Origin: Bacteroidota bacterium
GTDB taxonomy: Bacteria > Bacteroidota > Bacteroidia > NS11-12g > UBA955
NCBI GenBank assembly: GCA_027488835.1
Contig: JAIYAW010000009.1
Coordinates: 496,001 to 560,000 of the forward strand
Reading direction: 5' to 3'
Length of the DNA stretch: 64,000 nt
The position numbers and the translations under genes are program-made. Under the pieces are notes generated by a model, which did no database searches, had not been told where the DNA came from, and worked only from the letters and a program-made list of their open reading frames with translations. Shown here piece after piece: positions 1,427 to 19,034 of this stretch (within the stretch, counting starts at the first letter, position 1; each line of letters begins with the position of its first letter).

Positions 1427-1447
1427 AAGTTCATTTAATATGAACTT
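1427..1447. promoter_or_regulatory. Perfect palindrome upstream of the XRE regulator, probable operator
   Basis: AAGTTCAT, a 5-nt spacer and ATGAACTT form an inverted repeat with 8-bp perfect arms. It lies 35 bp before the ATG of the small HTH gene. A T-rich -7-like element (TAATTTTTG, 1468-1476) lies between, so the palindrome would cover the -33 region. This fits autorepression by the HTH protein, as in controller proteins of restriction systems. It could also act as a weak terminator for the preceding gene, since a few T residues follow. Confidence 0.5.
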
Positions 1448-1482: not shown

Positions 1483-1680
1483 ATGAACCGTATTTTAGAA
1501 GTACTTCAAACCAAAAAAATTAAACAAATCGATTTGGCTACGAAATTAGATGTTGCTAAATCTACTGTTTCACAATGGTGCTCTAACACAGCTCAACCAG
1601 CTGTTTCTACTTTGAATAAAATAGCTGATGTGCTTAATTGCGAGATAGCTGAATTACTTATTTCGAAAAAGAAAAAATAA
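1483..1680 (+). CDS. XRE/Cro-CI family transcriptional regulator
   Basis: A 65-residue protein that is almost entirely one Cro/CI-type helix-turn-helix. The segments QIDLATKLDVAKSTVSQW and TLNKIADVLNCEIAELL match the helix 2-3 and helix 4-5 parts of the fold. The C-terminus is a lysine run. It is the first gene of the defence operon, and the SNF2 helicase starts 2 nt after its stop. Small XRE proteins often time expression of restriction-modification genes, delaying nuclease relative to methylase. The palindrome at 1427-1447 is the obvious candidate binding site. The regulator identity is firm; its target is inference. Confidence 0.9.
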   Translation: MNRILEVLQTKKIKQIDLATKLDVAKSTVSQWCSNTAQPAVSTLNKIADVLNCEIAELLISKKKK

Positions 1681-1682
1681 TA

Positions 1683-4517
1683 ATGATTACATCCTATCAA
1701 GCAAAATATTTCGCCTACGAACTCTTAAAAAGAGCAAGCTCTGATTCGTCAGAAAAGTTTGGAGCAACTTTAATGGACGCTCAAGTTGAACTCAATCCCC
1801 ACCAGGTAGAAGCTGCACTGTTTGCTTTTAAATCACCATATTCAAAAGGAGCGATTTTAGCTGATGAAGTAGGACTTGGAAAAACGATTGAAGCAGGAAT
1901 TCTTTTAAGTCAACAGTGGGCAGAAAACAAAAAGCGAATACTAATTATTTGCCCTTCATCATTACGTAAACAATGGGTAAATGAATTAGCAGACAAGTTC
2001 TATTTGAAATCCGAAGTGTTGGAAAGCAAGAACTTTAATGCCAAATACAAAGCAGGTAATAAAAACCCATTCGATGATGGTAAAACAATTAAAATTTGTT
2101 CGTACCAGTTTGCAAGTATTAAATCCGAATTCATTCAACTTACTTCTTGGGATTTAATAGTACTAGATGAAGCGCATTATATGCGAAATGTTCACAAGAA
2201 TCCTGATAGTATAGCTGCTAAAATAAAGCATGCAATAAAAGATTACAAAAAAATATTACTTACCGCTACACCATTACAAAACAGATTGGATGAGCTGTTC
2301 GGTCTTGTAAGTATAATTGATCAAAATGTATTTGGTGACATCAAGACTTTTAGAAAGCAGTATGCAAATGGGGATTTAGACTTAATTGAACTTAAAGATA
2401 AGCTCAAGTCAATTATCCACCGAACTTTAAGAAAAGACGTGCGTGAGTTTGTGCCTTATAGAGAACGAATTCCTATTACACAACAATTTATCCCAACCAA
2501 AGAAGAGTCGTTACTATACAGCAACGTGTTAGAATATCTTCGTAATGAAACAATCTACGCATTGCCAAGGGCACAAAGGCACCTCATGGAGTCTGTAATG
2601 TTTAAATTGTTGGGATCTTCTTCTTTCGCAATCGGAAAAACACTAGAAGCCCTAATAAAGCGATTAAATGAATTGCTCAGTACTTCGAAGGTAGTAGAGC
2701 ATGAAATAATAACATGGTTTGAGGAAGAATATGAGAACTTTGACGATGAAAGAGATGAAGATGAAGAAGACAAAGAAGAACTACTCACAGAAATCACAGC
2801 TCAGGACAAAGAGAATATAAACAAAGAAATAGGCAAACTAACTGAATACCTTGTATTAGCCAATAGTATTGAACACAACGAGAAAGGAGAGAAACTGATA
2901 GTAGCTTTAGAAACTGGATTTTCAAAACTAAAAGACCTAGGTGCAAACCAAAAGGCCTTAATATTTACTGAATCTACTCGAACGCAAAAATATTTATTCG
3001 AGCGCCTTTCTAAAGAAAAGTACAACGGTAAAATTTTATTATTCAATGGAAGTAATAATGACGAGCTTTCAAGTTCTATTTACCAAAAATGGATCGCAGA
3101 TAAAAATAATTACGGTAAACTTTCCAATTCAAAAAGTATCGATATCAGGAATGCTTTAGTGGATGCATTTAAAAGCGATGACTATCAAATAATGATTGCT
3201 ACTGAAGCTGCGGCAGAGGGTATTAACTTGCAGTTTTGCAGCATGGTTGTAAACTATGATTTACCATGGAATCCGCAGCGAATTGAACAAAGAATTGGCA
3301 GATGTCACCGTTATGGTCAGTTACATGACGTTGTAGTGGTGAATTTTCTCAATAGCGAAAATGAAGTTGAAAACAGGGTGTTTGAATTACTTGAACAGAA
3401 ATATAATTTGTTCCAGGGTGTTTTTGGATCTTCAGATCATGTTTTAGGTGCAATTGAAAACGGTGTTGACTTTGAAAAACGTATGATTGAAGCATATAAA
3501 AAATGTAGATCAAAAGAAGAGATTGAAGTTTATTTTAAGGCGCTAGAGGAAGAATTTAAGGATGCAATTGACCAACGCATCAAAGAGGTACAAAGCGTCT
3601 TGTTTGAAAATTTTGAAGGTAGTGTTATCAACAAGTTACGTATTACCTATTCCGAAACAAAAACGTTTCTTGAAAAATTCGAGAAATGGCTTTGGGAAAT
3701 TACCAGATATTACCTTCAGACGTTGGCAGAATTTGAAGCTGAAGACTTCACTTTTACCCTAACGGAAAATGGAGATAGATACACTTTGAATAAAGAGCGC
3801 ACAGATGCCAAGCATTACCGCATTCAAAGTGATGTAGCACAAAAACTATTGGCACGAGCGAAAGCAGAGAAAACAGATAAAGCCCACTTAATATTTGACC
3901 TATCCTTATCACCTATCCGCTATAAAGAATTAGAATCACTAAGGGGAACAAAGGGATTACTTAAAATTAGTAACCTTGCTGTGCTATCTGAAATTGAAGA
4001 ACACGACACACTAATTCTAACTGGCACAACAAAGGATAAAAAGGTATTGTCTGAACAAAACGTGCGTAATCTTTTAAATGGCACTATTCAGACGGATAAA
4101 TTTGCGAAGTATGATACCGAAGAACTTGAAAAGCAGCATCAAAAAAACAAAAAACAGAAACTGGATTACCTTGAAAAATCTGATTCTGCATTTATGCAAC
4201 GTGAATTTACCAAGTTTGAACATTGGGCTGACGATAAAATACGTTCATTAGAAATTGATTTAAAAGATGAGCGCCAAAAAATGCGTGAACTTGAAAAAGA
4301 CCAACATAAAGAAAATATTTTGGCAGAAGAGTTGATTGAATTACAGGAAAAGATTTCCAAGATAAAACGAAAATACAATCGTTTAAGACAAGAAATTTAC
4401 GACCGTGAAGATGAAATAAACGAACAGCGTGACAACATGATTAAAGAAGCGAAGGGTAAACTAACCCGAACAATAAAAGAGGAAGAATTATTTACCGTAT
4501 CATTTGAAATTATCTAA
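1683..4517 (+). CDS. SNF2-family DEAD/DEAH helicase of the defence operon
   Basis: 944 residues. SNF2-type motifs are clear: DEVGLGKT (motif I, residues 61-68), DEAH (about 162-165), TATPLQNR (motif III, about 194), TEAAAEGINLQ (motif V) and QRIGRCHRYGQ (motif VI, about 535-545). The last roughly 130 residues are a lysine/glutamate-rich coiled coil. SNF2 enzymes of this type translocate on double-stranded DNA. Related helicases accompany methylases in DISARM class 1 (DrmD) and in other restriction-type systems. Here it is followed after one nucleotide by the methyltransferase gene. A role in sensing or remodelling phage DNA for the modification/restriction pair is inferred from context. Confidence 0.9.
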   Translation: MITSYQAKYFAYELLKRASSDSSEKFGATLMDAQVELNPHQVEAALFAFKSPYSKGAILADEVGLGKTIEAGILLSQQWAENKKRILIICPSSLRKQWVNELADKFYLKSEVLESKNFNAKYKAGNKNPFDDGKTIKICSYQFASIKSEFIQLTSWDLIVLDEAHYMRNVHKNPDSIAAKIKHAIKDYKKILLTATPLQNRLDELFGLVSIIDQNVFGDIKTFRKQYANGDLDLIELKDKLKSIIHRTLRKDVREFVPYRERIPITQQFIPTKEESLLYSNVLEYLRNETIYALPRAQRHLMESVMFKLLGSSSFAIGKTLEALIKRLNELLSTSKVVEHEIITWFEEEYENFDDERDEDEEDKEELLTEITAQDKENINKEIGKLTEYLVLANSIEHNEKGEKLIVALETGFSKLKDLGANQKALIFTESTRTQKYLFERLSKEKYNGKILLFNGSNNDELSSSIYQKWIADKNNYGKLSNSKSIDIRNALVDAFKSDDYQIMIATEAAAEGINLQFCSMVVNYDLPWNPQRIEQRIGRCHRYGQLHDVVVVNFLNSENEVENRVFELLEQKYNLFQGVFGSSDHVLGAIENGVDFEKRMIEAYKKCRSKEEIEVYFKALEEEFKDAIDQRIKEVQSVLFENFEGSVINKLRITYSETKTFLEKFEKWLWEITRYYLQTLAEFEAEDFTFTLTENGDRYTLNKERTDAKHYRIQSDVAQKLLARAKAEKTDKAHLIFDLSLSPIRYKELESLRGTKGLLKISNLAVLSEIEEHDTLILTGTTKDKKVLSEQNVRNLLNGTIQTDKFAKYDTEELEKQHQKNKKQKLDYLEKSDSAFMQREFTKFEHWADDKIRSLEIDLKDERQKMRELEKDQHKENILAEELIELQEKISKIKRKYNRLRQEIYDREDEINEQRDNMIKEAKGKLTRTIKEEELFTVSFEII

Positions 4518-4518
4518 G

Positions 4519-7488
4519 ATGAATAACTATAACCAATTAAAAGACGTACTAAACGATATATTCGAGCTAAATAAGGCAGATTTAGATTTTGGCATTTATC
4601 GTATCATAAATCAGAAACGGAAGCAAGTAAATGAGTTTATTGAAGTTCAACTTCCTGAAGACATAAAGAAGGCGTTGAGCGAAACGCAATCTGCTGACAA
4701 AACAGAGATTGAAAATGAAATAAAAACATTAAAAAAGAACCTTGATGATGCTGGTATTGTAGCCGAAGAAAGCCCCAAATACAAAACATTAAAAAATCGA
4801 TTATCTGGGATTGAAAATTCGGATGTTTTGGAACAGGAAGTGTTTTCACATTTGGCTAATTTCTTCCGTAGGTACTACAAAGACGGTGATTTTATTTCCA
4901 TGCGTAGGTATAAGAAAGATGTTTATTCAATACCTTATGAAGGTGAAGAAGTTAAATTGCATTGGGCAAATCATGATCAGTATTATATTAAATCATCCGA
5001 AAACTTTAAAAATTATAGCTTTAAAACATCGGATGACAAAAATGTATCTTTTCAATTAAAAGAAGTTAGCACTGAACAAAACAACAACAAAATTCAAGGT
5101 GATGCTGAACGAAGGTTTGCTATTTATAGTGATCTTCCAATAGAAGTGATTGAAGGGGAATTATTTATCAATTTTATTTACGAACCATTTTCTAAAACCA
5201 CAAAACAAGAAAGTCTATTAAGTGAAGCATTAGAAATGCTTATGGTTAAAATTCCTAGCGAATTTACAAAAGTATTTGTGCTTAGCCCAACTGAGAAAAA
5301 CACAAAAAGAACCTTGCTAGAGAAACATTTGAACGACTTTATATCAAAAAACAGCTTTGATTATTTTATACATAAAGATTTAGGTGGATTTCTTAATCGT
5401 GAGATAGATTTCTACATAAAAAACGAGGTATTATACATTGATGACATTAATTCAAAACAAACAGATTTTTTCGTTGCTCAACTCAGTAAGATTAAAGCAA
5501 TTAAAACAGTTGCTGCCAAGATAATTGACTTCTTAGCACAAATTGAAAATTTTCAGAAAAAACTATGGTTAAAGAAAAAGTTTGTATTAAAAACCGACTA
5601 TTGTATTACCCTAGATAAAATACCCAGTTCCTATTATCCTGAAATATTGCAAAATAAAGCCCAAATAGAGGAATGGAAAATACTTTTTGATTTCGAAATT
5701 CAAAATGTAGAGCAATTCATATTCGAGCAATACCTGGTGGTGGACACCAAGTTTTTTGATGATTCCTTTAAAGATAGATTAATTGCTGAATTTGACGATT
5801 TGCATATTCAAACAAATGGATTTATGATTAATTCGGATAATATCCAAGCATTGAATTTAATTCAAGATTTATTTAAAAATGACATAGACTTGATTCATAT
5901 AGATCCACCATACAATACAGCTACGAGCGGATTTCTATATAAAAATTCTTTTCAGCACTCTAGCTGGATTTCAATGATGGAAAATAGATTTTCAGCGTCA
6001 ATAAATTTGCTAGCAGAATCTTCTATCTACATGATTCATATCGATGAAAATGAATATGAAAATCTATTTAAACTTCTTGAGCAATTTCCAATTCAAAATT
6101 CAGGTACAATTATTTGGGACAAAAGGAATCCTGTTAGTGGTGCAAATAGAATAGCGACTCAACATGAATATATTTTAACATTTTCTAAAGGTCAGGTTAA
6201 ACTTAAAAAAGAAAAAGCTAATGGCTATTTGATTTTATCTAAGGCTAAATCTTTAATTAAAGAATTAGGTATAGATAAAGCAAGAATTGCATTAAAAAAA
6301 TGGATTGCGGAACAACAAGATTTTAGTGGGGGGGAAAGTGCCTATAATTTGATAGACGATGATGGTAGAGTATTTCAATCAGTTCATATGGGTGCACCAG
6401 AACAGAGAACACATGAAAAATTCTTTGTACCATTAATTCATCCAATAACAAAAAAACCATGTCCTGTGCCTTCCAGTGGCTGGGGTGGCACGCCTGATTT
6501 TATGAACGAATGCTTAAAAAATAATGAAATAATTTTTGGTGAAGATGAAAAAGCACAGCCAAGAAAAAAATATTTTTTAGAAAACAATCTAATAGGTGAA
6601 ATGAGTTCGTTAATTTACTCTGGTGCTAAAGGAAAAAAGCAAGCGAATGATTTGGGTTTCAATTTTCCGTATAACCACCCTGTTGAATTATACGAAAATT
6701 TAACATGGGCAGTCTTAAATGAAAAAGACGGTGTTGTATTAGACTACTTTGCAGGTTCAGGAACATCAGGTCATGCGGTTATCAACCTAAATAGAAAAGA
6801 TAAACTAAATCGAAAATACATCTTAATTGAAATGGGCAGTTATTTCAATACCGTTACGAAACCTCGAATTCAAAAAGTGATATATTCAGACAATTGGAAA
6901 AACGGCAAACCTCAGGACAAAAGTGGTATTTCGCAAATTGTAAAATATCAAGTTTTGGAGAGTTACGAAGACACATTAAACAACTTGTTTTTACAAAGTA
7001 AAACCGAGCTTGATTTTACTGGTAAAGCAAAAGAAGAATACTTATTGCAATATATGTTAGAAATGGAAAGTCGTGAGCATTTATTTAACCTTGAAATGTT
7101 CCGTAAACCTTTTGATTACCAATTAAAAGTAACCGAGAACAACGAACTTAAACCTACAAAAGTAGATTTAGTAGAAACCTTCAATTATTTAATTGGCTTA
7201 AAGGTGAACAAAGTGCAAAGGGTGAAAGATATCAAAGTAGTTGAGGGGGTTACCCGTAATGATATTAAAACATTGATTATTTGGAGAGATATGGAAACAA
7301 CCACGCATGACGAAGTGGAGAAACTATTACGAAGATTTTATGATAGCCAGCGCACCAAAGAGTTTCAACAGATATACATCAATGGTGACCATCACTTGGA
7401 AAACTTGCGATCTGAAGGCGATAGCTTTAAAATTAAATTAATTGAAGAAACATTCTTTAAGAAAATGTTCAACGAGACCGAATTATAA
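4519..7488 (+). CDS. Type III-like Mod DNA methyltransferase (adenine-specific type)
   Basis: 989 residues from the ATG at 4519, just after the helicase stop (TAAGATG); a TTG at 4504 is possible but less likely. Motif IV DPPYN (about residue 462) comes before motif I FAGSG (about residue 744), the order of the beta-class N6-adenine/N4-cytosine methylases that includes type III Mod subunits. The protein is longer than the usual Mod of roughly 600-700 residues. About 450 residues without a recognised motif precede DPPY, and the target-recognition region should lie between the two motifs. A run of seven G at 6328-6334 falls in that region. It overlaps the Res-like gene by one base (TAATG), so the two are probably translationally coupled. 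Confidence 0.9.
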   Translation: MNNYNQLKDVLNDIFELNKADLDFGIYRIINQKRKQVNEFIEVQLPEDIKKALSETQSADKTEIENEIKTLKKNLDDAGIVAEESPKYKTLKNRLSGIENSDVLEQEVFSHLANFFRRYYKDGDFISMRRYKKDVYSIPYEGEEVKLHWANHDQYYIKSSENFKNYSFKTSDDKNVSFQLKEVSTEQNNNKIQGDAERRFAIYSDLPIEVIEGELFINFIYEPFSKTTKQESLLSEALEMLMVKIPSEFTKVFVLSPTEKNTKRTLLEKHLNDFISKNSFDYFIHKDLGGFLNREIDFYIKNEVLYIDDINSKQTDFFVAQLSKIKAIKTVAAKIIDFLAQIENFQKKLWLKKKFVLKTDYCITLDKIPSSYYPEILQNKAQIEEWKILFDFEIQNVEQFIFEQYLVVDTKFFDDSFKDRLIAEFDDLHIQTNGFMINSDNIQALNLIQDLFKNDIDLIHIDPPYNTATSGFLYKNSFQHSSWISMMENRFSASINLLAESSIYMIHIDENEYENLFKLLEQFPIQNSGTIIWDKRNPVSGANRIATQHEYILTFSKGQVKLKKEKANGYLILSKAKSLIKELGIDKARIALKKWIAEQQDFSGGESAYNLIDDDGRVFQSVHMGAPEQRTHEKFFVPLIHPITKKPCPVPSSGWGGTPDFMNECLKNNEIIFGEDEKAQPRKKYFLENNLIGEMSSLIYSGAKGKKQANDLGFNFPYNHPVELYENLTWAVLNEKDGVVLDYFAGSGTSGHAVINLNRKDKLNRKYILIEMGSYFNTVTKPRIQKVIYSDNWKNGKPQDKSGISQIVKYQVLESYEDTLNNLFLQSKTELDFTGKAKEEYLLQYMLEMESREHLFNLEMFRKPFDYQLKVTENNELKPTKVDLVETFNYLIGLKVNKVQRVKDIKVVEGVTRNDIKTLIIWRDMETTTHDEVEKLLRRFYDSQRTKEFQQIYINGDHHLENLRSEGDSFKIKLIEETFFKKMFNETEL

Positions 7489-10400
7489 TGGCAAATTTTC
7501 ACGATAAAATAGTACTTAATAAGTTCCTTCTATCTTTATTTGGAATAGATGCCATAGGCTCTAAAATCTTATCTAAAGATGGGTTGGAAGTGTTTAAGGA
7601 ATTAAAACTTTCATCGAGCGAAGGCTATACTAAAGAAGGCAATACCAAGTTCCTGGAGCAGCTTAAAGCACATTTGTATTTAACTGATGATGTTACAGAA
7701 ATAATGTTACAGCAGTATGATGAAAACATAGTTCGATATACACAAGAGATATCAGCAGGGAGAGACGAAACTATTGTTTGGAAATATTTCCAATACCTGT
7801 CATTGCTATTCACTGAAATATATTTAGATAAATTCTTTGGCAATAAAAAACAGCTTCAGCACGATTTAAACCAATACGCAAAGAAGTTTAATAATCAGCA
7901 GGTTGAATTAAATCAAGGAAAAAAACTTGCAAGGGGGGAAACAATCTACCAGGTGTCTGCTTTTAAAGAAACGGATTTAAATAAGTTGGCATTTTGGAAT
8001 GCCACTGGCAGCGGTAAAACATTGTTGATGCATGTAAATATTAAGCAATATTTGCATTACGCTAAAAAACACAGTAAAGTTCATGATAGTAAGATATTAT
8101 TAATCACACCAAATGAACCCCTATCAAGGCAACATTTAGCGGACTTTTTAGTATCAGGTATACCAGCAAACATTTTTACAAAGAATCAATCTGGCATGTT
8201 CTCTGGTAAAGAGGTGGAGATTATTGAGGTCTCAAAATTATCGGAAGAAAGTAAAGAAAAAACAGTTGCGGTAGATAGTTTTGAAACGCATAATTTAGTG
8301 CTAGTGGATGAGGGGCACGGTGGTATGAGTGGAGATCAATGGAAACGATTTAGAGATCAACTAAGTACCACGGGATTTGCATTTGAATATTCAGCAACAT
8401 TTGGTCAAGCGATAAGTGCTGCGGCAAAAGGAAAAAAGGATGAACTAACACAAGAATATGCAAAGAGCATATTGTTTGACTATTCTTACAAATACTTTTA
8501 CGAGGATGGATATGGGAAAGATTACCGTATTCTCAATTTGAAGGAAGATAATGTTGATTTTAAGAACAAGTATCTTACAGCAAACTTGCTCTCGTTTTAC
8601 CAGCAACTATTACTATTCAAAAACAAGCCAGAATTAACAACACAATTTAGGTTATTTAAACCTTTATGGGTATTTGTAGGAAGTAGTGTAAATGCCGTAA
8701 GAAAAGAAAATGGAGTTGATACATCGGATGTATTAGATATTGTTCATTTCTTGTCGGATTTCCTTAAAAACCAAGATGATTACATAAAGTACATTGAATT
8801 AATTATAAATAATAAAGCTGGACTGCTTGACGCCAAAGGTTACGATATTTTTGATGGTAGTTTTGCTTTTTTAGAGGAACTTGAATTAACGCCCGTGCAA
8901 ATATTTGAGGGTATTAATAAAGAGATTTTTCATAATCATAACATTGGTGCTAACTTATACATTGATAACCTAAAGGGCGCAAATGGCGAACTAGGTTTGA
9001 GAGTTGGAGATACAGACAAATATTTTGGTGTTATTAATGTTGGTGATGAAAAGAAACTTCATGACCTCGCAATGAATAATGGCATACTCGGAACGGATAA
9101 AGATTTTTCCGAATCCTTATTCGCTCAAATCAATCATTTACAACCAAAACAGGAAATCAATATGCTTATTGGTTCCAAGAAATTCACAGAGGGTTGGTCT
9201 TCTTGGCGTGTGAGTTCAATGGGTTTAATGAACATTGGTAAATCAGAAGGCTCACAGATTATACAGTTATTTGGTAGAGGTGTGCGATTGCAGGGTTATG
9301 AGTTTAGCCTAAAGCGATCACTAGGTTTAGATGATTATCAAAGACCAGCAAACTTAAAACAGGTTCGTAAACACCTACGCCCTTTGGAGACATTGCAAAT
9401 ATTTGGTGTTAAAGCTAACTATATGGAGCGATTCAAAGAATTGCTTGAAGAAGAAGGCTTACCAACAAATTCAGGAGATTGGGTAACAATTACCATTCCA
9501 ACACAAAATAAGATTGATATCTCATCAAGTGATTTAAAGTTAATCCAGGTTAAAGAGTCTGAAAATTTTAAAAAGAAAGAAATATTAACCCTTGAGTTAA
9601 ATATTGATGTATTTAGGAACAAACAAGTAGAAGTTGACTGGTATCCTAAAATTGATACTTTAGAAAGCACCAAATCAAGCAGGGTGGAAACAATAAAGCA
9701 AGTTTGTTATTTGGAAGAAAATCATTTTGCGTTTATCGATTGGACTAAGTTGTACTTCGAAATTCAAAACTTTAAAGCGAATAAAGGATTTCCAAACTTG
9801 GAGATTGAATTGACGTTGTTGCAGGATATAGTTAAAAACAATTCATGGTACAGGGTTTTTATTCCAAAAGACAAGATGGAATTTAGTTCCTTTAAAAACG
9901 TTTCCGTTTGGCAGGAATTAGCTACGATACTTCTTAAAAAGTACATTGAGCAATACTATCTATATTTCAAAAATAGGTTTAATGCTGAAAATATAGAAAC
10001 CCGAAAACTGTTGCCCACAGATGATAATCTTATTTTACAGTATGACATTCGTTTAAACAAAAACGAAGATGTAGACGATATCGATAAAAAAATCAGAAAG
10101 TTAAAAACGGATTTTACAGACAGCGCATTCAAATCTATTCAAATAGCTACTCAGGTTGAAGCATTTGATAATTTAATGCATTTGTACAAACCTTTAATTT
10201 ATGTTGGAAAAGGCTATGAAAGCAAACTTCAGGTCTTCCCTATTGCACTTAACGAATCCGAACATCAATTTATGATAGATTTCGAAGTGCAAATTGCTAA
10301 AATAAAGGCTTCGAGGAAACTGGAAGAGGTCTTCTTGTTGCGTAACCAAAGTAAAAAGGGTATTGGTTTTTTTGCTGAAGGAAATAATTTTTACCCAGAT

Positions 10401-10706
10401 TTTATTCTTTGGATTAAGAAGGATGGCAAACAATACTTAACATTTATTGATCCAAAAGGTATTCGTAATTCCAAAGGAATGAATGACCCGAAAATTCAGT
10501 TTTATAAGTACCTAGCTGATAAGGTACAGCCACAAGTTATAAATGAGGATTTAATTCTAAACTCTTTCATTGTATCAAACACAAAATGGATCGAAGTGAA
10601 CTGGAAGGATAGTCACACAATCAGTGATTTCAATGATAACCATGTTTATTTTCAGGAAGAACAAAGTGGCGAATACATTACAAAGATGATAAACAAACTA
10701 TTTTAA
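7488..10706 (+). CDS. Type III restriction enzyme Res-like subunit (helicase plus nuclease)
   Basis: 1072 residues. ATGSGKT at residues 172-178 is the Walker A motif and DEGH near 274 is the DExH box. QLFGRGVRL is motif VI. Near the C-terminus a PD-(D/E)xK-type nuclease signature is visible: PD at about 970-971, then DPK at 988-990. This is the layout of type III Res subunits, which translocate and cleave after meeting unmodified sites with their Mod partner. The start codon overlaps the Mod stop. A G6 run lies at 7933-7938, shortly before the Walker A motif. No internal stop is seen, so the gene appears intact. Confidence 0.9.
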   Translation: MANFHDKIVLNKFLLSLFGIDAIGSKILSKDGLEVFKELKLSSSEGYTKEGNTKFLEQLKAHLYLTDDVTEIMLQQYDENIVRYTQEISAGRDETIVWKYFQYLSLLFTEIYLDKFFGNKKQLQHDLNQYAKKFNNQQVELNQGKKLARGETIYQVSAFKETDLNKLAFWNATGSGKTLLMHVNIKQYLHYAKKHSKVHDSKILLITPNEPLSRQHLADFLVSGIPANIFTKNQSGMFSGKEVEIIEVSKLSEESKEKTVAVDSFETHNLVLVDEGHGGMSGDQWKRFRDQLSTTGFAFEYSATFGQAISAAAKGKKDELTQEYAKSILFDYSYKYFYEDGYGKDYRILNLKEDNVDFKNKYLTANLLSFYQQLLLFKNKPELTTQFRLFKPLWVFVGSSVNAVRKENGVDTSDVLDIVHFLSDFLKNQDDYIKYIELIINNKAGLLDAKGYDIFDGSFAFLEELELTPVQIFEGINKEIFHNHNIGANLYIDNLKGANGELGLRVGDTDKYFGVINVGDEKKLHDLAMNNGILGTDKDFSESLFAQINHLQPKQEINMLIGSKKFTEGWSSWRVSSMGLMNIGKSEGSQIIQLFGRGVRLQGYEFSLKRSLGLDDYQRPANLKQVRKHLRPLETLQIFGVKANYMERFKELLEEEGLPTNSGDWVTITIPTQNKIDISSSDLKLIQVKESENFKKKEILTLELNIDVFRNKQVEVDWYPKIDTLESTKSSRVETIKQVCYLEENHFAFIDWTKLYFEIQNFKANKGFPNLEIELTLLQDIVKNNSWYRVFIPKDKMEFSSFKNVSVWQELATILLKKYIEQYYLYFKNRFNAENIETRKLLPTDDNLILQYDIRLNKNEDVDDIDKKIRKLKTDFTDSAFKSIQIATQVEAFDNLMHLYKPLIYVGKGYESKLQVFPIALNESEHQFMIDFEVQIAKIKASRKLEEVFLLRNQSKKGIGFFAEGNNFYPDFILWIKKDGKQYLTFIDPKGIRNSKGMNDPKIQFYKYLADKVQPQVINEDLILNSFIVSNTKWIEVNWKDSHTISDFNDNHVYFQEEQSGEYITKMINKLF

Positions 10707-10779
10707 AACACAGTTTTAATCTTTTTGGTCGCAAACATTAATTAAAAAACAATAGTAAAGAAAAATCGAAAAATAGCAT

Positions 10780-12426
10780 ATGGAAAAAATTATCGCACTG
10801 TACGAAAAAAGGAAAGATTCGTTTGCTTTTGACCAAGAAGCGAGAACCAGAGTCGATGAGGCTTGGCAGTATTTTAGGGATAAAATCGTCAATGAAACAT
10901 TTACATTGGAAGACTTTGCTAATACTATTCCGAATATTCAAGACCGAGCAATCATAGATAAAGGTGGTTATTTGATGAATTTCTTGGAGAGAACGAGCAG
11001 TAAATCATATGGTTCGTCAAAGCCAGGTAATGCCTTCAATTATGGCATTAAAATGAACAACGACAATACCACCTACACATTAGTAAGCAATCGTGAAGAA
11101 GAAGTAGATCATGCGACCGCTTTAGAGGCTTTCAATATAAACATCAAGTCATTTTTACATGGTTTATTAATGAATGAAGATGGCAGCCCAACTAGTATTG
11201 TAGAAAAAATACAAGCTATTGAATCAGATGATAATTATATTCCTGCAACGCAACTACTCAGAAAGATTGCAGCATTAGAACATCCAAAGGATTTAATGCC
11301 AATTTATCAAGATTCGACAATTGATAAATTATTTAAAATGTTTTGTGATAATGAAGATGCGACAACAAATCTTGGTAAAAATTATGCCATTGTACAGAAG
11401 TTAAAATCATTATTTAACGATGGTAATGAATTCCTGCCATCTGAACTATATATCCTATCTCAGTTTTTATGGAGACTTGAAAATGCTCAAACAATTTTTG
11501 ATCCAGCAAATAAAAACGTAATTCTTTATGGTGCACCAGGAACGGGTAAAACATTTACAGTATTAGAAGCACTTGAACTACTAACTAAAGGCGATAGTAA
11601 TTTTTATAAAGTTATTCAATTCCACCCATCTTACTCATATGAAGATTTCATTGAAGGTATTAGACCAACTGGAATTGTTGGTAGTAGTTTGAATTTGCAA
11701 GTAGTAAATGGCACATTTAAGGAGTTTTGTATCAAAGCAAAGAATGATTTGAGCAATGATTACTATTTCGTTATAGATGAAATTAACAGGGGTAATTTGT
11801 CTAGTATTTTTGGCGAACTATTATTCTGTCTAGAATATAGGTATAATCCTAATGACGACAGAAGTTTGAATCTTGTTCAAACGCAATATTCTAATCTTAT
11901 AAAGAATCTAACTGACGATAAGGAAAGACTGTCATTTATTATTCAAAATGACGAGGTCTATTTTGGAATTCCTGATAACGTATATGTAATTGGGATGATG
12001 AATGATGTAGACAAAAGTATTGACTCATTTGACTTAGCATTAAGAAGGCGTTTTAAATGGATTCGAAAAGAATGCGATTACGAGGTAATTACAGATGTCT
12101 TGTCCGATTATACGGAAATTGAGCAATATATTGATGCTTGCAAAAAGTTAAATCAAAAAATAAGTGCTTCAAGTGAATTAAACCTTGGTAAATCTTATGA
12201 ATTTGGACATGCTTTCTTTTTAAGAATAAAGGATATATCTAGAGGCAATAAGATAAAGCAAGGAGATATGGCTTTGCTTTTTGACAATTATTTACAACCA
12301 ACACTTAAAGAATACATGCGCTCTGTATATGCAGAAAGCGATATAGATGATAAGTTAAAAGAAATTAAGGAATCATTTATTAATCTTGTTCCCAAAAAGA
12401 CTAGGAAGAAACGTGATCAAAATTAA
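10780..12426 (+). CDS. mcrB: McrB-like AAA+ GTPase/ATPase
   Basis: 548 residues. The Walker A motif is GAPGTGKT (251-258). The Walker B is VIDEINRGN (D333, E334), the form typical of McrB. A sensor-type MMNDVDKS and an LALRRRF arginine-finger segment follow. McrB forms hexamers that drive DNA translocation for the McrC nuclease, classically on modified-cytosine DNA. The first 240 residues, where McrB proteins carry their target-reading domain, are not recognised, so the modification read cannot be predicted. There is a 73-bp spacer after the Res-like gene with no terminator in it, so it is probably in the same operon. McrC overlaps its 3' end. Confidence 0.9.
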   Translation: MEKIIALYEKRKDSFAFDQEARTRVDEAWQYFRDKIVNETFTLEDFANTIPNIQDRAIIDKGGYLMNFLERTSSKSYGSSKPGNAFNYGIKMNNDNTTYTLVSNREEEVDHATALEAFNINIKSFLHGLLMNEDGSPTSIVEKIQAIESDDNYIPATQLLRKIAALEHPKDLMPIYQDSTIDKLFKMFCDNEDATTNLGKNYAIVQKLKSLFNDGNEFLPSELYILSQFLWRLENAQTIFDPANKNVILYGAPGTGKTFTVLEALELLTKGDSNFYKVIQFHPSYSYEDFIEGIRPTGIVGSSLNLQVVNGTFKEFCIKAKNDLSNDYYFVIDEINRGNLSSIFGELLFCLEYRYNPNDDRSLNLVQTQYSNLIKNLTDDKERLSFIIQNDEVYFGIPDNVYVIGMMNDVDKSIDSFDLALRRRFKWIRKECDYEVITDVLSDYTEIEQYIDACKKLNQKISASSELNLGKSYEFGHAFFLRIKDISRGNKIKQGDMALLFDNYLQPTLKEYMRSVYAESDIDDKLKEIKESFINLVPKKTRKKRDQN

Positions 12427-13864
12427 GCTAACAGATAATTTTAATTTTTACAACGAGGTAAAACTTACTTATGCTAATCCAGATTTGGATTTATGGAATC
12501 GCTTTGTGTCTTATAATAATAAGAAAGTAACTAAAAGTATAATTGAAAAAATTAGAAAGATTAAAGATGATACCATAAAGGCTAAGGACATTGAAAAATC
12601 AAACATTAGGGTTGAAACTATCTGGGGTGCTAATAAAGGCAATACATCAAAAGATGATGATAACATTGTCCTTCAGATAATCAACAATAACGATGAATTG
12701 ATAATAAAGACAGGCAATTTTGTTGGTGTTATTTTTACACAAGGAATATCAGTCGAAATAGATTCAAGATTTGGCAAATACTTTTTACAACGAATGCTTA
12801 ATTTTGCAAATGATATTTTCTTAGGTGACATTGAGCAATCAGGCTATAAAAAATCATCTAATACAAATCCGTTTAAGTTTATTATTTCCTATTTGTTTAT
12901 TCAGTCTTTAGAAAAGGCTTGGGTCAAAGGATTCCCAAAATCTTACACCACCCAAAGTGATAGAAGCTTAAAGTTAAAAGGCAGTGTAGATATTAATGAA
13001 TTGATTAAAAAAGACATTCCATATTCTGGCAAGATCTCTTACAAATATCGAAATCAGCAAAACGTAAACGAAATTGTAAACGTGTTATACAAGGCAGTGA
13101 GTAAGGTTAAATCCTCTTACCCAAATGTAATCAATTCAAATATTCACAATATCACACAGGATTTGGCAATTGATCGCACACTTACTTTTGTAAACAGGGC
13201 ATTAATCCAAAAAGCACAGAAGCACAAATCGCTGCAAAATTCATTGTACTCTGATTATAAGATAGCTTTAAATTATGCGGAATTGATTATAGAGGATTTG
13301 AATGAAATAGATGAAACAGATACTGATTTTAAAACAACAGGCTTTCTAATTGACATTTCTAAATTGTACGAATTATACTTGGAGAAACTACTAAAAAACA
13401 ATCTACAAGAATTTAATGTTTCTGGGCAAACAAAAATTGTATCGTACCATCAATCTGCTTATATCCGCAATTTAATACCAGACTTAGTTTTAACCAATAA
13501 GGAAACTGGTGATGTTGCTGTTTTTGATTCTAAGTACAAGACATTAAGATTAAACAAAGAGTATTATGGTAAAGATATTGACAGAGCTGATTTTTTTCAA
13601 ATCCATACATACATGGGTTATTATGGCAATAACATTAAAATTGGCGGTTTAATTTATCCAACAATTGGTGCTGAGTCAGATGATCTTTTGCCAGTTGAAA
13701 AGTTATTTGGCAATAATAACAGTAACAATTGTTTTACTATCGATGGTATTAATACTGGTTTAAATAATGATGGAGATTTATTTATGAGCTATTCTAGTAT
13801 TTTAGAAAATGAACGTAGTTTTATAAATCGTTTTAAGAACAAACTCGAAAAAGCATTCGGATAG
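12413..13864 (+). CDS. mcrC: McrC-like nuclease subunit
   Basis: 483 residues from a GTG at 12413, chosen because AGGAAGAA (12403-12410) sits just before it as a ribosome-binding site; a TTG at 12386 is the longer alternative. The start lies inside the end of mcrB, so the subunits should be made in balance. The C-terminal half has the McrC nuclease signature: PDLVL with D357, followed by FDSKYK with D372 and K374, a PD-(D/E)xK arrangement. McrC binds the McrB hexamer and supplies DNA cleavage. It is the last gene of the operon and a terminator hairpin follows about 90 bp later. Confidence 0.9.
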   Translation: MIKIKLTDNFNFYNEVKLTYANPDLDLWNRFVSYNNKKVTKSIIEKIRKIKDDTIKAKDIEKSNIRVETIWGANKGNTSKDDDNIVLQIINNNDELIIKTGNFVGVIFTQGISVEIDSRFGKYFLQRMLNFANDIFLGDIEQSGYKKSSNTNPFKFIISYLFIQSLEKAWVKGFPKSYTTQSDRSLKLKGSVDINELIKKDIPYSGKISYKYRNQQNVNEIVNVLYKAVSKVKSSYPNVINSNIHNITQDLAIDRTLTFVNRALIQKAQKHKSLQNSLYSDYKIALNYAELIIEDLNEIDETDTDFKTTGFLIDISKLYELYLEKLLKNNLQEFNVSGQTKIVSYHQSAYIRNLIPDLVLTNKETGDVAVFDSKYKTLRLNKEYYGKDIDRADFFQIHTYMGYYGNNIKIGGLIYPTIGAESDDLLPVEKLFGNNNSNNCFTIDGINTGLNNDGDLFMSYSSILENERSFINRFKNKLEKAFG

Positions 13865-13904: not shown

Positions 13905-13956
13905 AAATTCTTGCCGAGAAAATGTAATGGTTAATTTATTAAAGGCTATGAGAATG

Positions 13957-13978
13957 CCCAATTTTATTGGGTTTTATT
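13957..13978 (+). terminator. Rho-independent terminator of the defence operon
   Basis: CCCAAT, a TTT loop and ATTGGG form a 6-bp stem, followed by TTTTATT. It lies about 90 bp after the mcrC stop, before the convergent gene group that ends at 13999. Confidence 0.55.
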
Positions 13979-13998: not shown

Positions 13999-14448
13999 TC
14001 AATATAAAGCTCTTTTTTTTTCTGGGAATTCTGAAATATATGGCTGCTTTAGATAAATCACTTTGCCACTAAGACCACTATTATACAAAACAATTGTATC
14101 GCTATGGGTAAAGGAGAATATGGCAGTGCCATAAGGCGCATTGCTAGGAATGATTATATCGTATTTCATATCCTTGAACCTTAATCTACCTTTAAGCAAA
14201 AGTACAGAATGCGCAGAATCCAATAGGTTCTGGAATTGAATGGTTTCAACCCTAGTATTAACGACCAACAAACCTGATTGATTTTCATTGTACATATCGA
14301 TGATGGGCTCATCATCTTTAGTTAAACAATGCGCCAAAGTTCTTCCCTCTAATTTTAATCCTGGGGAATATCTGGTTATTATGTTATCAAATGACCCAAG
14401 TTCATTTAATATCTTATCTGGTAATTGATATCCTTTATTTATTTGCAT
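13999..14448 (-). CDS. Uncharacterised protein resembling the C-terminal half of phage Dam
   Basis: 149 residues from the ATG at 14448, which overlaps the previous stop by 14 nt; an upstream ATG at 14478 is the alternative. The second half reads like the C-terminal part of phage-type DNA N6-adenine methyltransferases: a beta strand LLVV, then FQNLL, KGRLRF, and NAPYGTAIFSF. The catalytic DPPY motif that should precede this is absent both here and in the gene upstream. It is therefore a fragment, an inactivated relative or a chance resemblance. It is the last of three tightly spaced genes. Confidence 0.5.
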   Translation of the reverse strand: MQINKGYQLPDKILNELGSFDNIITRYSPGLKLEGRTLAHCLTKDDEPIIDMYNENQSGLLVVNTRVETIQFQNLLDSAHSVLLLKGRLRFKDMKYDIIIPSNAPYGTAIFSFTHSDTIVLYNSGLSGKVIYLKQPYISEFPEKKRALY

Positions 14449-15127
14449 TTTGTATGTCGGTTTTAGTTTTACGGTCAATGATTATTCTGGGTATTAGTGT
14501 TTGAAGCTGATCGAGTGTGATTTTAAATCGTTTTGGTTTGATAGATTGTTGTATTTCTTGGTCGAAATGAACTCCCAGCACTTTGTCGATGACTTCATTA
14601 ATCTTCCCCTTTGTTATTGGTTTGTTCTCTTGAAATATTTCATACTCATCTTTGAGCCTATCAACCATTGTTTCTATTTGTGTAGAATAAGATTCGAACT
14701 CATTTGGGTTGATATTGATTTCCAGCGCAATTCTATTAAGTACATGTTTCCATTCTGGATCTCCGTTGCCAATTAAACTTGTGAAGTATTGCTTGACCAA
14801 GCCTTCATCAAAATCACCTTTGTTCATTTGAAGAATTATTTTACCATACTTTGATTGCCAAAAGGTCAAAGGTTCTCTGTTCTCATTCTCATTAAGTGTG
14901 TATTTTGTTTTTAATTCATCCAGGTATTCTGCTCTGGCTTTCCCTGATACAGCCGATGCAAAGTTTTTCCTCTCTGCTTTTTGATCCTTGGAAAGGTCGT
15001 TGGCCAATTTCGCTGCATCAAGATTATGTGCCGCTAAAAAGTTCTTTACAGCTATCGCTCTAATTCCTGTATACTGCGCAATGGTATTGATATACTTTTC
15101 GTTTGATTGGTTGTTATTAGTTTGCAT
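14435..15127 (-). CDS. Uncharacterised protein
   Basis: 230 residues, hydrophilic and mostly helical, with no signal peptide, membrane segment or motif that I recognise. The N-terminus (IAQYTGIRAIAVKNFLAAHNL) could be a small helical DNA- or protein-binding unit. It starts 3 nt after the stop of the 68-residue gene and overlaps the next gene by 14 nt, so all three are likely co-expressed. The setting inside an island with recombinases suggests a phage or mobile origin. Confidence 0.6.
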   Translation of the reverse strand: MQTNNNQSNEKYINTIAQYTGIRAIAVKNFLAAHNLDAAKLANDLSKDQKAERKNFASAVSGKARAEYLDELKTKYTLNENENREPLTFWQSKYGKIILQMNKGDFDEGLVKQYFTSLIGNGDPEWKHVLNRIALEININPNEFESYSTQIETMVDRLKDEYEIFQENKPITKGKINEVIDKVLGVHFDQEIQQSIKPKRFKITLDQLQTLIPRIIIDRKTKTDIQNANK

Positions 15128-15871: not shown

Positions 15872-15901
15872 TTTGCAATATGTAAAATTTAATTATATTT
15901 G
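15872..15901 (+). promoter_or_regulatory. Promoter of the serine recombinase
   Basis: TTTG at 15872-15875, an 18-bp spacer and TATATTTG at 15894-15901 match the Bacteroidota -33/-7 consensus. The start codon follows 19 nt after the -7 box, which also argues that translation starts at 15921 and not at the upstream ATG at 15873. Confidence 0.7.
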
Positions 15902-15920
15902 CCTAATAAATATTTCAAAC

Positions 15921-16637
15921 ATGAAAAAATACGTTTGCTATTATAGGGTCTCCACCCAAAAACAAGGTGCGGAAGGTTTAGGCATTAATGCTCAAAAAAA
16001 CGCTGTTGTAAAATATATTGGCAATAACAAATCAGAAATTTTAGGGGAATTTATTGAAGTAGAAACAGGTACAAGGAAAAGAAAGAGAGTTGAAATATAT
16101 AATGCAATCGAACTTGCAAAAAAAAATAATGCAACACTGCTAGTTGCAAAATTAGATCGTCTTTCAAGAGACGTAGAGTTCACCAGTGCATTATATAATG
16201 CTGGCGTTGAATTTATTTGTTGTGATAATCCAACTGCAAACAAGTTGACAATACAATTACTTTCGGTAATAGCGGAAAATGAAGCTGAGGTAATTTCAAA
16301 TAGAATAAAAAGTGCATTGGCGGTAAAAAAAGAAAGGATCAAAAAAGGTATAATTGTAAATAAGGATGGTTCTGAAATGAAACCTGTAAATGGTAAATAC
16401 AGACTTGGTAATCCAAATGGTTTTGGTGTTTATCAGAAACTAGGCGCTCAAAAGATCAAGGAATTGGCAGCAACCAATAAATCCAATATTCAAGCTATGG
16501 ATATCATTTGCTCAGCAAGAAAGCAGAACATGACATTGCAGCAAATTGCGGATAAGTTAAATTCACTTCAATATGTAACTAGACGAGGAAAAACCTTTAC
16601 TCCAACACAAGTTTCTAGGTTATATTTGAAATGTTAG
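15921..16637 (+). CDS. Serine recombinase, resolvase/invertase family
   Basis: 238 residues. YYRVSTQKQ carries the catalytic serine (S11), and LDRLSR and the NRIKSAL helix are standard for the resolvase N-terminal domain. The C-terminal ~60 residues (TLQQIADKLNS, then RRGKTFTPTQVSRL) form a helix-turn-helix DNA-binding region. Such enzymes resolve, invert or integrate DNA between short sites. No inverted or repeated crossover site was found nearby, so its reaction is unknown. It is a second recombinase in an island that also carries a tyrosine integrase. Confidence 0.9.
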   Translation: MKKYVCYYRVSTQKQGAEGLGINAQKNAVVKYIGNNKSEILGEFIEVETGTRKRKRVEIYNAIELAKKNNATLLVAKLDRLSRDVEFTSALYNAGVEFICCDNPTANKLTIQLLSVIAENEAEVISNRIKSALAVKKERIKKGIIVNKDGSEMKPVNGKYRLGNPNGFGVYQKLGAQKIKELAATNKSNIQAMDIICSARKQNMTLQQIADKLNSLQYVTRRGKTFTPTQVSRLYLKC

Positions 16638-17455: not shown

Positions 17456-18700
17456 TCAAGCTCCCTTCTTCGCCTGGTTACTAAATACCAAGCTAGCTTC
17501 TGATTTTACTTTTTCATCAGTTATTTGACCATATATTTCAGTCGTTTGAATTTTGCTGTGCCCTAACATACTTTGAAGTGATTCAAGCGATCCACCATTA
17601 TTTAACCAGTTTGTAGTGGCAAACGTATGTCTCGCAACGTGACTGGTTAAATTTTTATTTACTCCACACATCAAAGCAATCATTTTTAACAAATGGTTAA
17701 AATCATTGATGTGAATTACAGGGAGCAATAAATCTGTCCCAACAATATCCTGATGAAGTCTGTATTTTTCAATGATTGATAATGCTAATTTATTCAAAGG
17801 AACTAAAAACCGCACTTTTGTTTTGTCTCTATATTTTACAATAGACAAACTTCCATCTTTATCTCTTTCTAGATTGGACTTATTAAATGACCGCAAATCT
17901 GAAATTGCTAAACCAGTATTGCAAGCAAATAGAAAACAGTCTGCTGTTCTTTGAATGCGTTCATCGGCCTTTGAAAAATCAAAATTGGCTATTGACAAAT
18001 ACTCTTCATCTGTTAAATATTTAATTGTCTGTTCAACCTTTTCGAATTTGCAATCGTTGAAAGGGAATTTTTCTATGTGATTTGTATTACATGCATATCG
18101 TACAGCTGCATGTAGCACTTTAAGATAACCATTGATGGTACTTGGTTTATAATTAAAGCGATTCATCATGAATTGCTTAAACCCATCTCTCCATTCTTTG
18201 TTTAGCACCTTGACATCAACCTTTTTATTGCCCAGACGAACCAAATTGAAGTCATTTACACATGTTTGAACAAACCTATAACGTTTTATTCTAATTGCGC
18301 CTAAATCACTTCTATGCAGCTCTATATACCTATCAAATAGATCTGAAACAAGTACTTCTTTTGACTTCCCAGTCCCCTTGTTGAAAAGTACAAATTCAAT
18401 TTCAGATTTGAGATCCTTCATATTTGGATTTGCTACAACATTAATATACCGTTGAAATATATTTTGTGTTTCAACTTCCAATTGACTCAATTGGGTATTT
18501 AATCGATTGCTGTCAATCCCAGTGCCTGAAACTGATTTGGTTATTTTGTTCCATCGGTTTTCTGGAATTGTTATTTTAGTGGAGAAAGTAAAGTCTCTCC
18601 CATTTTCCCAGCTAGGGAATACCCTTAAGAAAATAGTTCTTTGGGTTTTGTCTGATTTTGTGGGGCGTGCCACCCTTGAGATTCTAATAAAATTTGGCAT
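17456..18700 (-). CDS. Tyrosine recombinase (integrase) lacking the usual first catalytic Arg
   Basis: 414 residues from the ATG at 18700; the longer frame to 18796 would add a hydrophobic tail not typical of the family. Domains are arm-binding (about 1-90), core-binding SAM-like (about 110-205) and catalytic (about 225-400). The H-x-x-R box is HVARHTF near 357, LGH lies near 380 and the nucleophile is Y390. At the Arg I position the sequence is TGLA (Ala265), whereas most integrases have TGLR. CTnDOT-type integrases of Bacteroidota are known to lack this arginine. The gene lies next to the 3' end of tRNA-Lys, the standard place for island integration. Confidence 0.9.
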   Translation of the reverse strand: MPNFIRISRVARPTKSDKTQRTIFLRVFPSWENGRDFTFSTKITIPENRWNKITKSVSGTGIDSNRLNTQLSQLEVETQNIFQRYINVVANPNMKDLKSEIEFVLFNKGTGKSKEVLVSDLFDRYIELHRSDLGAIRIKRYRFVQTCVNDFNLVRLGNKKVDVKVLNKEWRDGFKQFMMNRFNYKPSTINGYLKVLHAAVRYACNTNHIEKFPFNDCKFEKVEQTIKYLTDEEYLSIANFDFSKADERIQRTADCFLFACNTGLAISDLRSFNKSNLERDKDGSLSIVKYRDKTKVRFLVPLNKLALSIIEKYRLHQDIVGTDLLLPVIHINDFNHLLKMIALMCGVNKNLTSHVARHTFATTNWLNNGGSLESLQSMLGHSKIQTTEIYGQITDEKVKSEASLVFSNQAKKGA

Positions 18701-18813
18701 TTTTCTTTTTTCATTTTTTAAAATTATTTTAGATGTGTAACATGTTAACGTTATAATAGTGAGAAAAAAAAATCCAAGAGTCAAGTTTTGGAACACAAAT
18801 TTTTAAAAATAAT

Positions 18814-18934: not shown

Positions 18935-18961
18935 TTTGATGTCTTTTGACTTTCGTCTCTG

Positions 18962-19034
18962 TGATCCCGCTGGGACTCGAACCCAGGACCCATACATTAA
19001 AAGTGTATTGCTCTACCAACTGAGCTACGGAATC
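18962..19034 (-). tRNA. tRNA-Lys (anticodon TTT)
   Basis: 73 nt. The acceptor arms GATTCCG and CGGGATC pair (one G-T), with discriminator A; the CCA tail is not encoded. The D arm holds AGCTCAGTTGGTAGAGC, the anticodon loop is CTTTTAA on an ATACA/TGTAT stem, and the T arm holds GGTTCGAGTCC. Its 3' end faces the island, and the integrase gene lies 260 bp away, so it is the probable attachment locus. Confidence 0.95.

What the first reader, a model, noticed from the sequence alone, without database searches (positions are those of the whole stretch)
1483..13864. Helicase, methylase, Res-like and McrBC genes in one defence operon
Seen: six same-strand genes with TAATG or near-zero junctions across the first four, a 73-bp gap before mcrB with no terminator, and a terminator only after mcrC. 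Known: SNF2 helicase plus methylase occurs in DISARM class 1, helicase-methylase-ATPase sets have been described as HMA, type III Mod-Res and McrBC are separate classical systems. Inference: here a modification-dependent nuclease (McrBC) and a modification-requiring nuclease (Res) share one promoter and one regulator, which could block both unmodified and differently modified phage DNA. No DrmA, DrmB or DrmC gene is present, so it is not DISARM.
Basis: partly seen in the sequence, partly recalled or inferred. Interest (0 to 1): 0.6.

Follow-up and report, generated by a model that had tools for sequence, protein, structure and literature searches.

The report
Type III restriction island carrying McrBC
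A 22-kb mobile DNA island in a bacterium of the Bacteroidota phylum carries a widespread helicase-assisted restriction-modification system, with a second DNA-cutting system (McrBC, apparently without its usual sensor domain) attached behind it in a pairing not found in any other genome examined.

Summary
The six genes are real and intact: an HTH regulator, a DrmD/RapA-like SNF2 helicase, Mod, Res, McrB and McrC. They are two units. HTH-SNF2-Mod-Res is a widespread helicase-associated type III restriction-modification module. Relatives were found in Bacteroidota, Bacillota, Proteobacteria, Planctomycetota and archaea. McrBC is cargo placed behind it. No McrBC follows Res in any of the other 69 Mod-Res loci with at least 3.2 kb downstream, and none of the McrBC loci found had SNF2, Mod or Res nearby. 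In the closest relative of the core (89-92% DNA identity), homology runs from the end of the HTH gene to the end of Res. McrBC is absent there, Mod is doubled, and its target-recognition region is exchanged. Related loci carry other defence genes in comparable positions (GmrSD, PARIS-like, Schlafen), so mixing a type IV enzyme with this core recurs with a different enzyme. The operon sits on a 22-kb tRNA-Lys integrative element that is absent from two congeners. This McrB lacks the N-terminal EVE-type reader present in its three closest relatives, so 'modification-dependent' is unproven here. The most likely reading is two restriction systems expressed together from one mobile island, a new variant of a known kind.

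The parts
1427..1447 (.). Palindrome AAGTTCAT-TTAAT-ATGAACTT upstream of the HTH gene: possible operator, or terminator of the upstream gene
   Evidence: sequence read directly; function inferred only
1483..1680 (+). XRE/Cro-CI type HTH regulator, 65 aa
   Evidence: Pfam HTH_26 3.3e-13, HTH_3 2.6e-12; similar HTH upstream of SNF2 in L040, L053, L068, L087
1683..4517 (+). SNF2-family helicase, DrmD/RapA-like, 944 aa
   Evidence: PADLOC DrmD 665 bits; NCBIfam DISARM_DrmD_b 671 bits against cutoff 950; best PDB sequence match RapA
4519..7488 (+). Type III-like Mod, N6/N4 DNA methyltransferase, 989 aa
   Evidence: PADLOC MTase_III 883 bits; Pfam N6_N4_Mtase; PDB EcoP15I Mod 5.6e-35; DPPYN and FAGSGT motifs conserved
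5915..6736 (+). Target-recognition region of Mod, exchanged in the close relative L042
   Evidence: 89-92% DNA identity to L042 on both sides, none across this stretch; conservation minimum at Mod residues 541-720 of 81 aligned sequences
7488..10706 (+). Type III-like Res: helicase plus C-terminal PD-(D/E)XK-like motif, 1072 aa
   Evidence: PADLOC REase_III 619 bits; Pfam ResIII; motifs ATGSGKT, YPDF and DPKG conserved in 81 sequences
10780..12426 (+). McrB-like AAA+ GTPase with NxxD signature and no N-terminal EVE domain, 548 aa
   Evidence: Pfam AAA_5; Foldseek to E. coli McrB 1.2e-15; alignment A2; EVE domain present in L130, L180, L221 only
12413..13864 (+). McrC nuclease (DUF2357 / PD-(D/E)XK), 483 aa from GTG
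   Evidence: Pfam McrBC PF10117 2.7e-38; PD and DSK motif residues conserved
13956..13972 (+). Terminator-like hairpin with T-rich tail after mcrC
   Evidence: number of such sites near chance
17456..18796 (-). Tyrosine integrase of the 22-kb element
   Evidence: PHROG integrase 1.1e-41; XerD/XerC profiles
18960..18975 (.). Right attachment repeat TGTGATCCCGCTGGGA at the 3' end of tRNA-Lys; the left copy lies 3.1 kb before the window (contig C5:492868)
   Evidence: empty site in G010 and G008
18961..19034 (-). tRNA-Lys(TTT), the integration target

Best explanation
A mobile 22-kb tRNA-Lys integrative element carries two DNA-restriction systems in tandem. The first is a helicase-associated type III restriction-modification module: Mod recognises and methylates an asymmetric site, Res is the sliding helicase-nuclease that cuts DNA lacking that mark, and the DrmD/RapA-like SNF2 protein probably helps translocation, protein displacement or target discrimination. 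The second is an McrBC GTPase-nuclease pair added behind Res as exchangeable cargo, probably transcribed at least partly by read-through from the core. Shown: gene content, intact motifs, module boundaries, exchange of the target-recognition region, cargo replacement in relatives, and the mobile element with its empty site. Inferred: co-transcription, anti-phage function, the helicase's role, and what McrBC senses.
For: SNF2-Mod-Res recurs across phyla: 47 of 96 Mod-Res loci have SNF2 within 6 kb upstream, mostly abutting, and it occurs on plasmids of Enterobacteria and Alphaproteobacteria. L042 shows 89-92% DNA identity from window 1634 to 10700 only, with a different regulator upstream, a 756-aa gene in place of McrBC, and two Mods with a swapped target-recognition region. 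Cargo of other defence types lies between Mod and Res or just after Res: GmrSD_N in 8 of 117 neighbouring proteins, DUF4276 in 4, AriA/Old-like ATPases in 8-9, Schlafen AlbA in one. McrBC relatives stand alone. Integration: 16-bp direct repeat and empty sites in G010 and G008.
Against: No expression or phage data. The 73-bp gap may hold a promoter the scans cannot see. McrB lacks a recognisable reader, so the second system might be non-functional or dependent on something else. 30 Mod-Res loci with at least 3.5 kb upstream lack a detectable SNF2, so the helicase is not obligatory.
Confidence: 0.72

Rival explanations
1. One integrated system: McrBC has lost its own reader and serves as an extra nuclease effector directed or licensed by Mod, Res or the SNF2 helicase. 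This would be analogous to LlaJI, where an McrBC-related pair acts on an unmodified site alongside two methyltransferases.
For: The EVE-type reader present in the three closest McrB relatives is absent here, with in-frame stops just upstream of the start. NxxD-clade McrB is often associated with methyltransferases (PMC11090510). The LlaJI precedent is reviewed in PMC12707154.
Against: The pairing was seen once only. The core occurs without McrBC in relatives such as L042. There is a 73-bp gap rather than tight coupling, and no fused or shared domain.
Confidence: 0.1
2. Degraded or regulatory McrBC: acquisition behind Res deleted the reader, leaving an inactive remnant or a product resembling the short McrB form, which withdraws McrC from active assemblies.
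For: Reader missing. The short McrB precedent is reviewed in PMC12707154.
Against: Both genes are full-length otherwise, with intact Walker, NxxD and PD-(D/E)XK motifs. No second close McrB was found in the genome with this query.
Confidence: 0.13
3. A DISARM or Hma variant: the helicase and methylase belong to one of those systems.
For: The SNF2 protein hits DrmD profiles strongly and HmaA weakly.
Against: No DrmA, DrmB, DrmC or HmaC; DrmD_b score 671 is below the cutoff 950; Mod is type III-like and is followed by Res.
Confidence: 0.03

Closest known systems
Type III restriction-modification (EcoP15I Mod-Res)
   Same: Mod has the DPPY-then-FxGxG motif order with the target-recognition region between; the best PDB match is EcoP15I Mod. 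Res has SF2 helicase motifs and a C-terminal PD-(D/E)XK-like motif.
   Different: Mod is about 345 residues longer than EcoP15I Mod (989 against 644), with a long N-terminal extension. Res has no PDB sequence match at E 0.01. A SNF2 helicase gene precedes Mod.
DISARM class 1
   Same: A DrmD-like SNF2 helicase next to an adenine-type methylase.
   Different: No DrmA, DrmB or DrmC; the methylase is type III-like; a Res is present; the DrmD score is below cutoff.
Hma (helicase, methylase, ATPase)
   Same: Helicase plus methylase operon; embedded cargo genes are known for Hma as well (as cited in PMC11411939).
   Different: No HmaC ATPase; HmaB is described as an m5C methylase (PMC8565338), whereas this Mod is N6/N4 type.
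McrBC type IV restriction
   Same: McrB AAA+ GTPase with NxxD motif and overlapping McrC nuclease gene.
TgvAB inside a type I operon of Vibrio cholerae; BrxU with BREX
   Same: A type IV enzyme accompanies a methylating restriction system (PMC11411939).
   Different: Those are GmrSD-family enzymes; here it is McrBC, downstream rather than embedded, with a type III core.

Membership tests
Type III restriction-modification | Beta-class Mod with target-recognition region between DPPY and FxGxG motifs | tested here: met
   DPPYN at residue 462, FAGSGT at 744, conserved in 81 sequences; exchanged region between them; MTase_III 883 bits
Type III restriction-modification | Res with SF2 helicase motifs and PD-(D/E)XK nuclease | tested here: met
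   REase_III 619 bits, Pfam ResIII, YPDF/DPKG motif conserved; nuclease fold not modelled
Type III restriction-modification | Asymmetric site, one-strand methylation, cleavage needing two unmodified sites | not testable with these tools
   needs methylome sequencing and biochemistry
DISARM | DrmA, DrmB and DrmC present | tested here: not met
   the six proteins show no DrmB or DrmC family match among the rows listed; the only DrmA match is the SNF2 protein at 103 bits, through its helicase region
DISARM | DrmD above curated cutoff | tested here: not met
   671 bits against 950
Hma | HmaC ATPase gene with helicase and m5C methylase | tested here: not met
   no HmaC match among the rows listed; the methylase is N6_N4_Mtase type
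McrBC type IV restriction | McrB AAA+ GTPase plus McrC nuclease in adjacent genes | tested here: met
McrBC type IV restriction | N-terminal modified-base reader on McrB | tested here: inconclusive
   the EVE-type domain of the closest relatives is absent; residues 1-240 are modelled as helices at low confidence, so an unknown reader is not excluded
Conserved six-gene system | Same gene order in other genomes | tested here: not met
   0 of 69 other Mod-Res loci with at least 3.2 kb downstream have McrBC

The most novel reading that the evidence does not exclude
McrBC has lost its own reader and become a second nuclease under the control of the SNF2-Mod-Res complex, so that a type III methylase or helicase, not a modified-base reader, decides when McrBC cuts.
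Probability: 0.08. Interest if true: 0.7.

Novelty: new variant of a known kind. Interest (0 to 1): 0.38.

Why it matters
The locus shows a widespread but little-described helicase-associated type III module acting as a platform that carries varied extra defence genes (GmrSD, PARIS-like, Schlafen, McrBC).

Tried and rejected
DISARM and Hma were tested and rejected on missing genes and scores. BREX-related helicase-methylase systems were checked in PMC12839542, without a match to this gene set in the passages read. Promoter scans, both sigma-70 type and the TTTG/TANNTTTG pattern used for Bacteroidota (that consensus is from my own knowledge), gave counts at chance level and no call in the 73-bp gap. 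Viral-contig scans gave one McrBC locus only. The McrB model had low confidence in residues 1-240. No Rfam family other than the tRNA was found. A literature search in the open-access library found no named system for SNF2-Mod-Res; absence there is weak evidence.

Full report
Observation. The window holds six closely spaced + strand genes: HTH 1483-1680, SNF2 helicase 1683-4517, Mod 4519-7488, Res 7488-10706, McrB 10780-12426 and McrC 12413-13864. The first four are separated by -1 to +2 bp; a 73-bp gap precedes mcrB; mcrC overlaps mcrB by 14 bp if its GTG start is used. No terminator-like site lies in the gap, and the first one after mcrC is at 13956-13972, though the number of such sites is near chance.

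Identity of the parts. Against PADLOC the helicase matches DrmD (665 bits), Mod matches MTase_III (883 bits) and Res matches REase_III (619 bits). Pfam gives SNF2, N6_N4_Mtase, ResIII, AAA_5 and McrBC. NCBIfam DrmD_b scores 671 against a cutoff of 950, so the helicase looks like a sister of DrmD rather than a member. By sequence the nearest solved structures are EcoP15I Mod and RapA; Res has no solved relative at E 0.01. Motifs for ATP binding, methylation and PD-(D/E)XK cleavage are intact and conserved.

The core is widespread. A scan of genome contigs with Mod gave 79 loci from many bacterial phyla and from archaea, and a scan with Res gave further Bacteroidota loci. Annotating all of them with profiles built here gave 96 Mod-Res loci including the window; 47 have SNF2 upstream within 6 kb, most of them abutting. 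Plasmids of Escherichia and Blastomonas carry SNF2-Mod-Res, close Mod relatives occur on many Klebsiella plasmids, and Conchiformibius carries Mod-Res-SNF2. An HTH gene like the window's lies upstream of SNF2 in L040, L053, L068 and L087. Thirty Mod-Res loci with at least 3.5 kb upstream have no detectable SNF2, so the helicase is a frequent but not obligatory partner.

McrBC is not part of the core. Among the other 69 Mod-Res loci with at least 3.2 kb of sequence after Res, none has McrB or McrC by profile search. The McrBC relatives found in Bacteroidota and in one viral contig had no SNF2, Mod or Res in the stretch read (some of those contigs are short). McrB relatives of this type are rare: none at E 1e-40 among 197 relatives apart from the window's own genome, and one in 395 genomes of the class. 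These are samples, so rare recurrences cannot be excluded.

Module boundaries. In L042, from a freshwater-lake Bacteroidetes metagenome genome, DNA identity of 89-92% runs from window 1634 to 5915 and from 6736 to 10700, that is, from the end of the HTH gene to the end of Res. Upstream is a different gene set that includes a 309-aa HTH/WYL-like regulator (read from its sequence), and downstream a 756-aa protein without Pfam match replaces McrBC. The break at 5915-6736 lies between the DPPY and FxGxG motifs of Mod, the place of the target-recognition region, which is also the conservation minimum across 81 Mod proteins. L042 has two tandem Mods.

Cargo in relatives. In 35 of 96 loci more than 500 bp separate Mod and Res. 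Proteins in such gaps or just after Res include GmrSD-family proteins (L045, L059, L087), AAA_21 plus DUF4276 pairs that resemble PARIS (L050, L070, L076, L086), a Schlafen AlbA protein (L061) and a PHP-SMC protein (L082). Over 117 neighbouring proteins, 8 carry GmrSD_N, 4 carry DUF4276, and 8-9 match AriA/Old/Gabija-type ATPase profiles, many of which overlap. Precedents are TgvAB inside a type I operon and GmrSD-like genes inside Hma clusters (PMC11411939).

A McrB without its reader. The three closest McrB relatives (L130, L180, L221; 44-49% identity) have about 165-190 extra N-terminal residues. A model of that domain (mean pLDDT 79, two sequences in the alignment) matches EVE and YTH structures, among them the EVE-containing enzyme VcaM4I at E 1e-5 and PH1033 at 1e-4. 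The window's McrB starts after this domain, with in-frame stop codons just upstream, and no window ORF matches it. The genome's one EVE gene over the Pfam cutoff lies elsewhere on the contig. Residues 1-240 of the window's McrB are modelled as helices at low confidence, so another reader cannot be excluded.

Mobile element. A tyrosine integrase (17456-18796) abuts tRNA-Lys (18961-19034). The 16-bp sequence TGTGATCCCGCTGGGA at the tRNA 3' end recurs 22.1 kb to the left, outside the window. In two congeners the flanking genes lie close together, and the left and right homologies meet at this repeat, which is the empty site. The whole operon is therefore cargo of an integrative element.

Mechanism. 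The most likely reading is two restriction systems carried together: Mod-Res with a helpful SNF2 motor against DNA lacking the host mark, and McrBC as a second nuclease whose trigger is unknown. Co-expression is plausible from spacing but unproven. The integrated reading, in which McrBC is directed by the type III proteins, has a distant parallel in LlaJI (PMC12707154) and stays possible at low probability.

Noticed in passing
L042:4870-10868: Two tandem full-length Mod genes share most of their sequence with the window's Mod but differ across the target-recognition region, suggesting duplication to gain a second specificity.
   Followed up: partly
L042:14143-16413: A 756-aa protein with no Pfam or PHROG match sits directly after Res in the place that McrBC occupies in the window: a candidate unknown defence gene.
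   Followed up: partly
window 13999-15127, - strand: Two overlapping genes (159 and 230 aa) without any Pfam, NCBIfam or PHROG match lie behind mcrC on the opposite strand within the element.
   Followed up: partly
window 15873-16637: A serine recombinase/DNA invertase-like gene lies inside the same element as the tyrosine integrase.
   Followed up: no
L050, L070, L076, L086 between Mod and Res: An AAA_21 ATPase plus DUF4276 pair (PARIS-like) is inserted between Mod and Res in four loci.
   Followed up: partly
L034:6998-9943: In Priestia megaterium a different, 982-aa helicase not matched by the SNF2 profile takes the place of SNF2 before Mod-Res, so the helicase partner may be exchangeable.
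   Followed up: no
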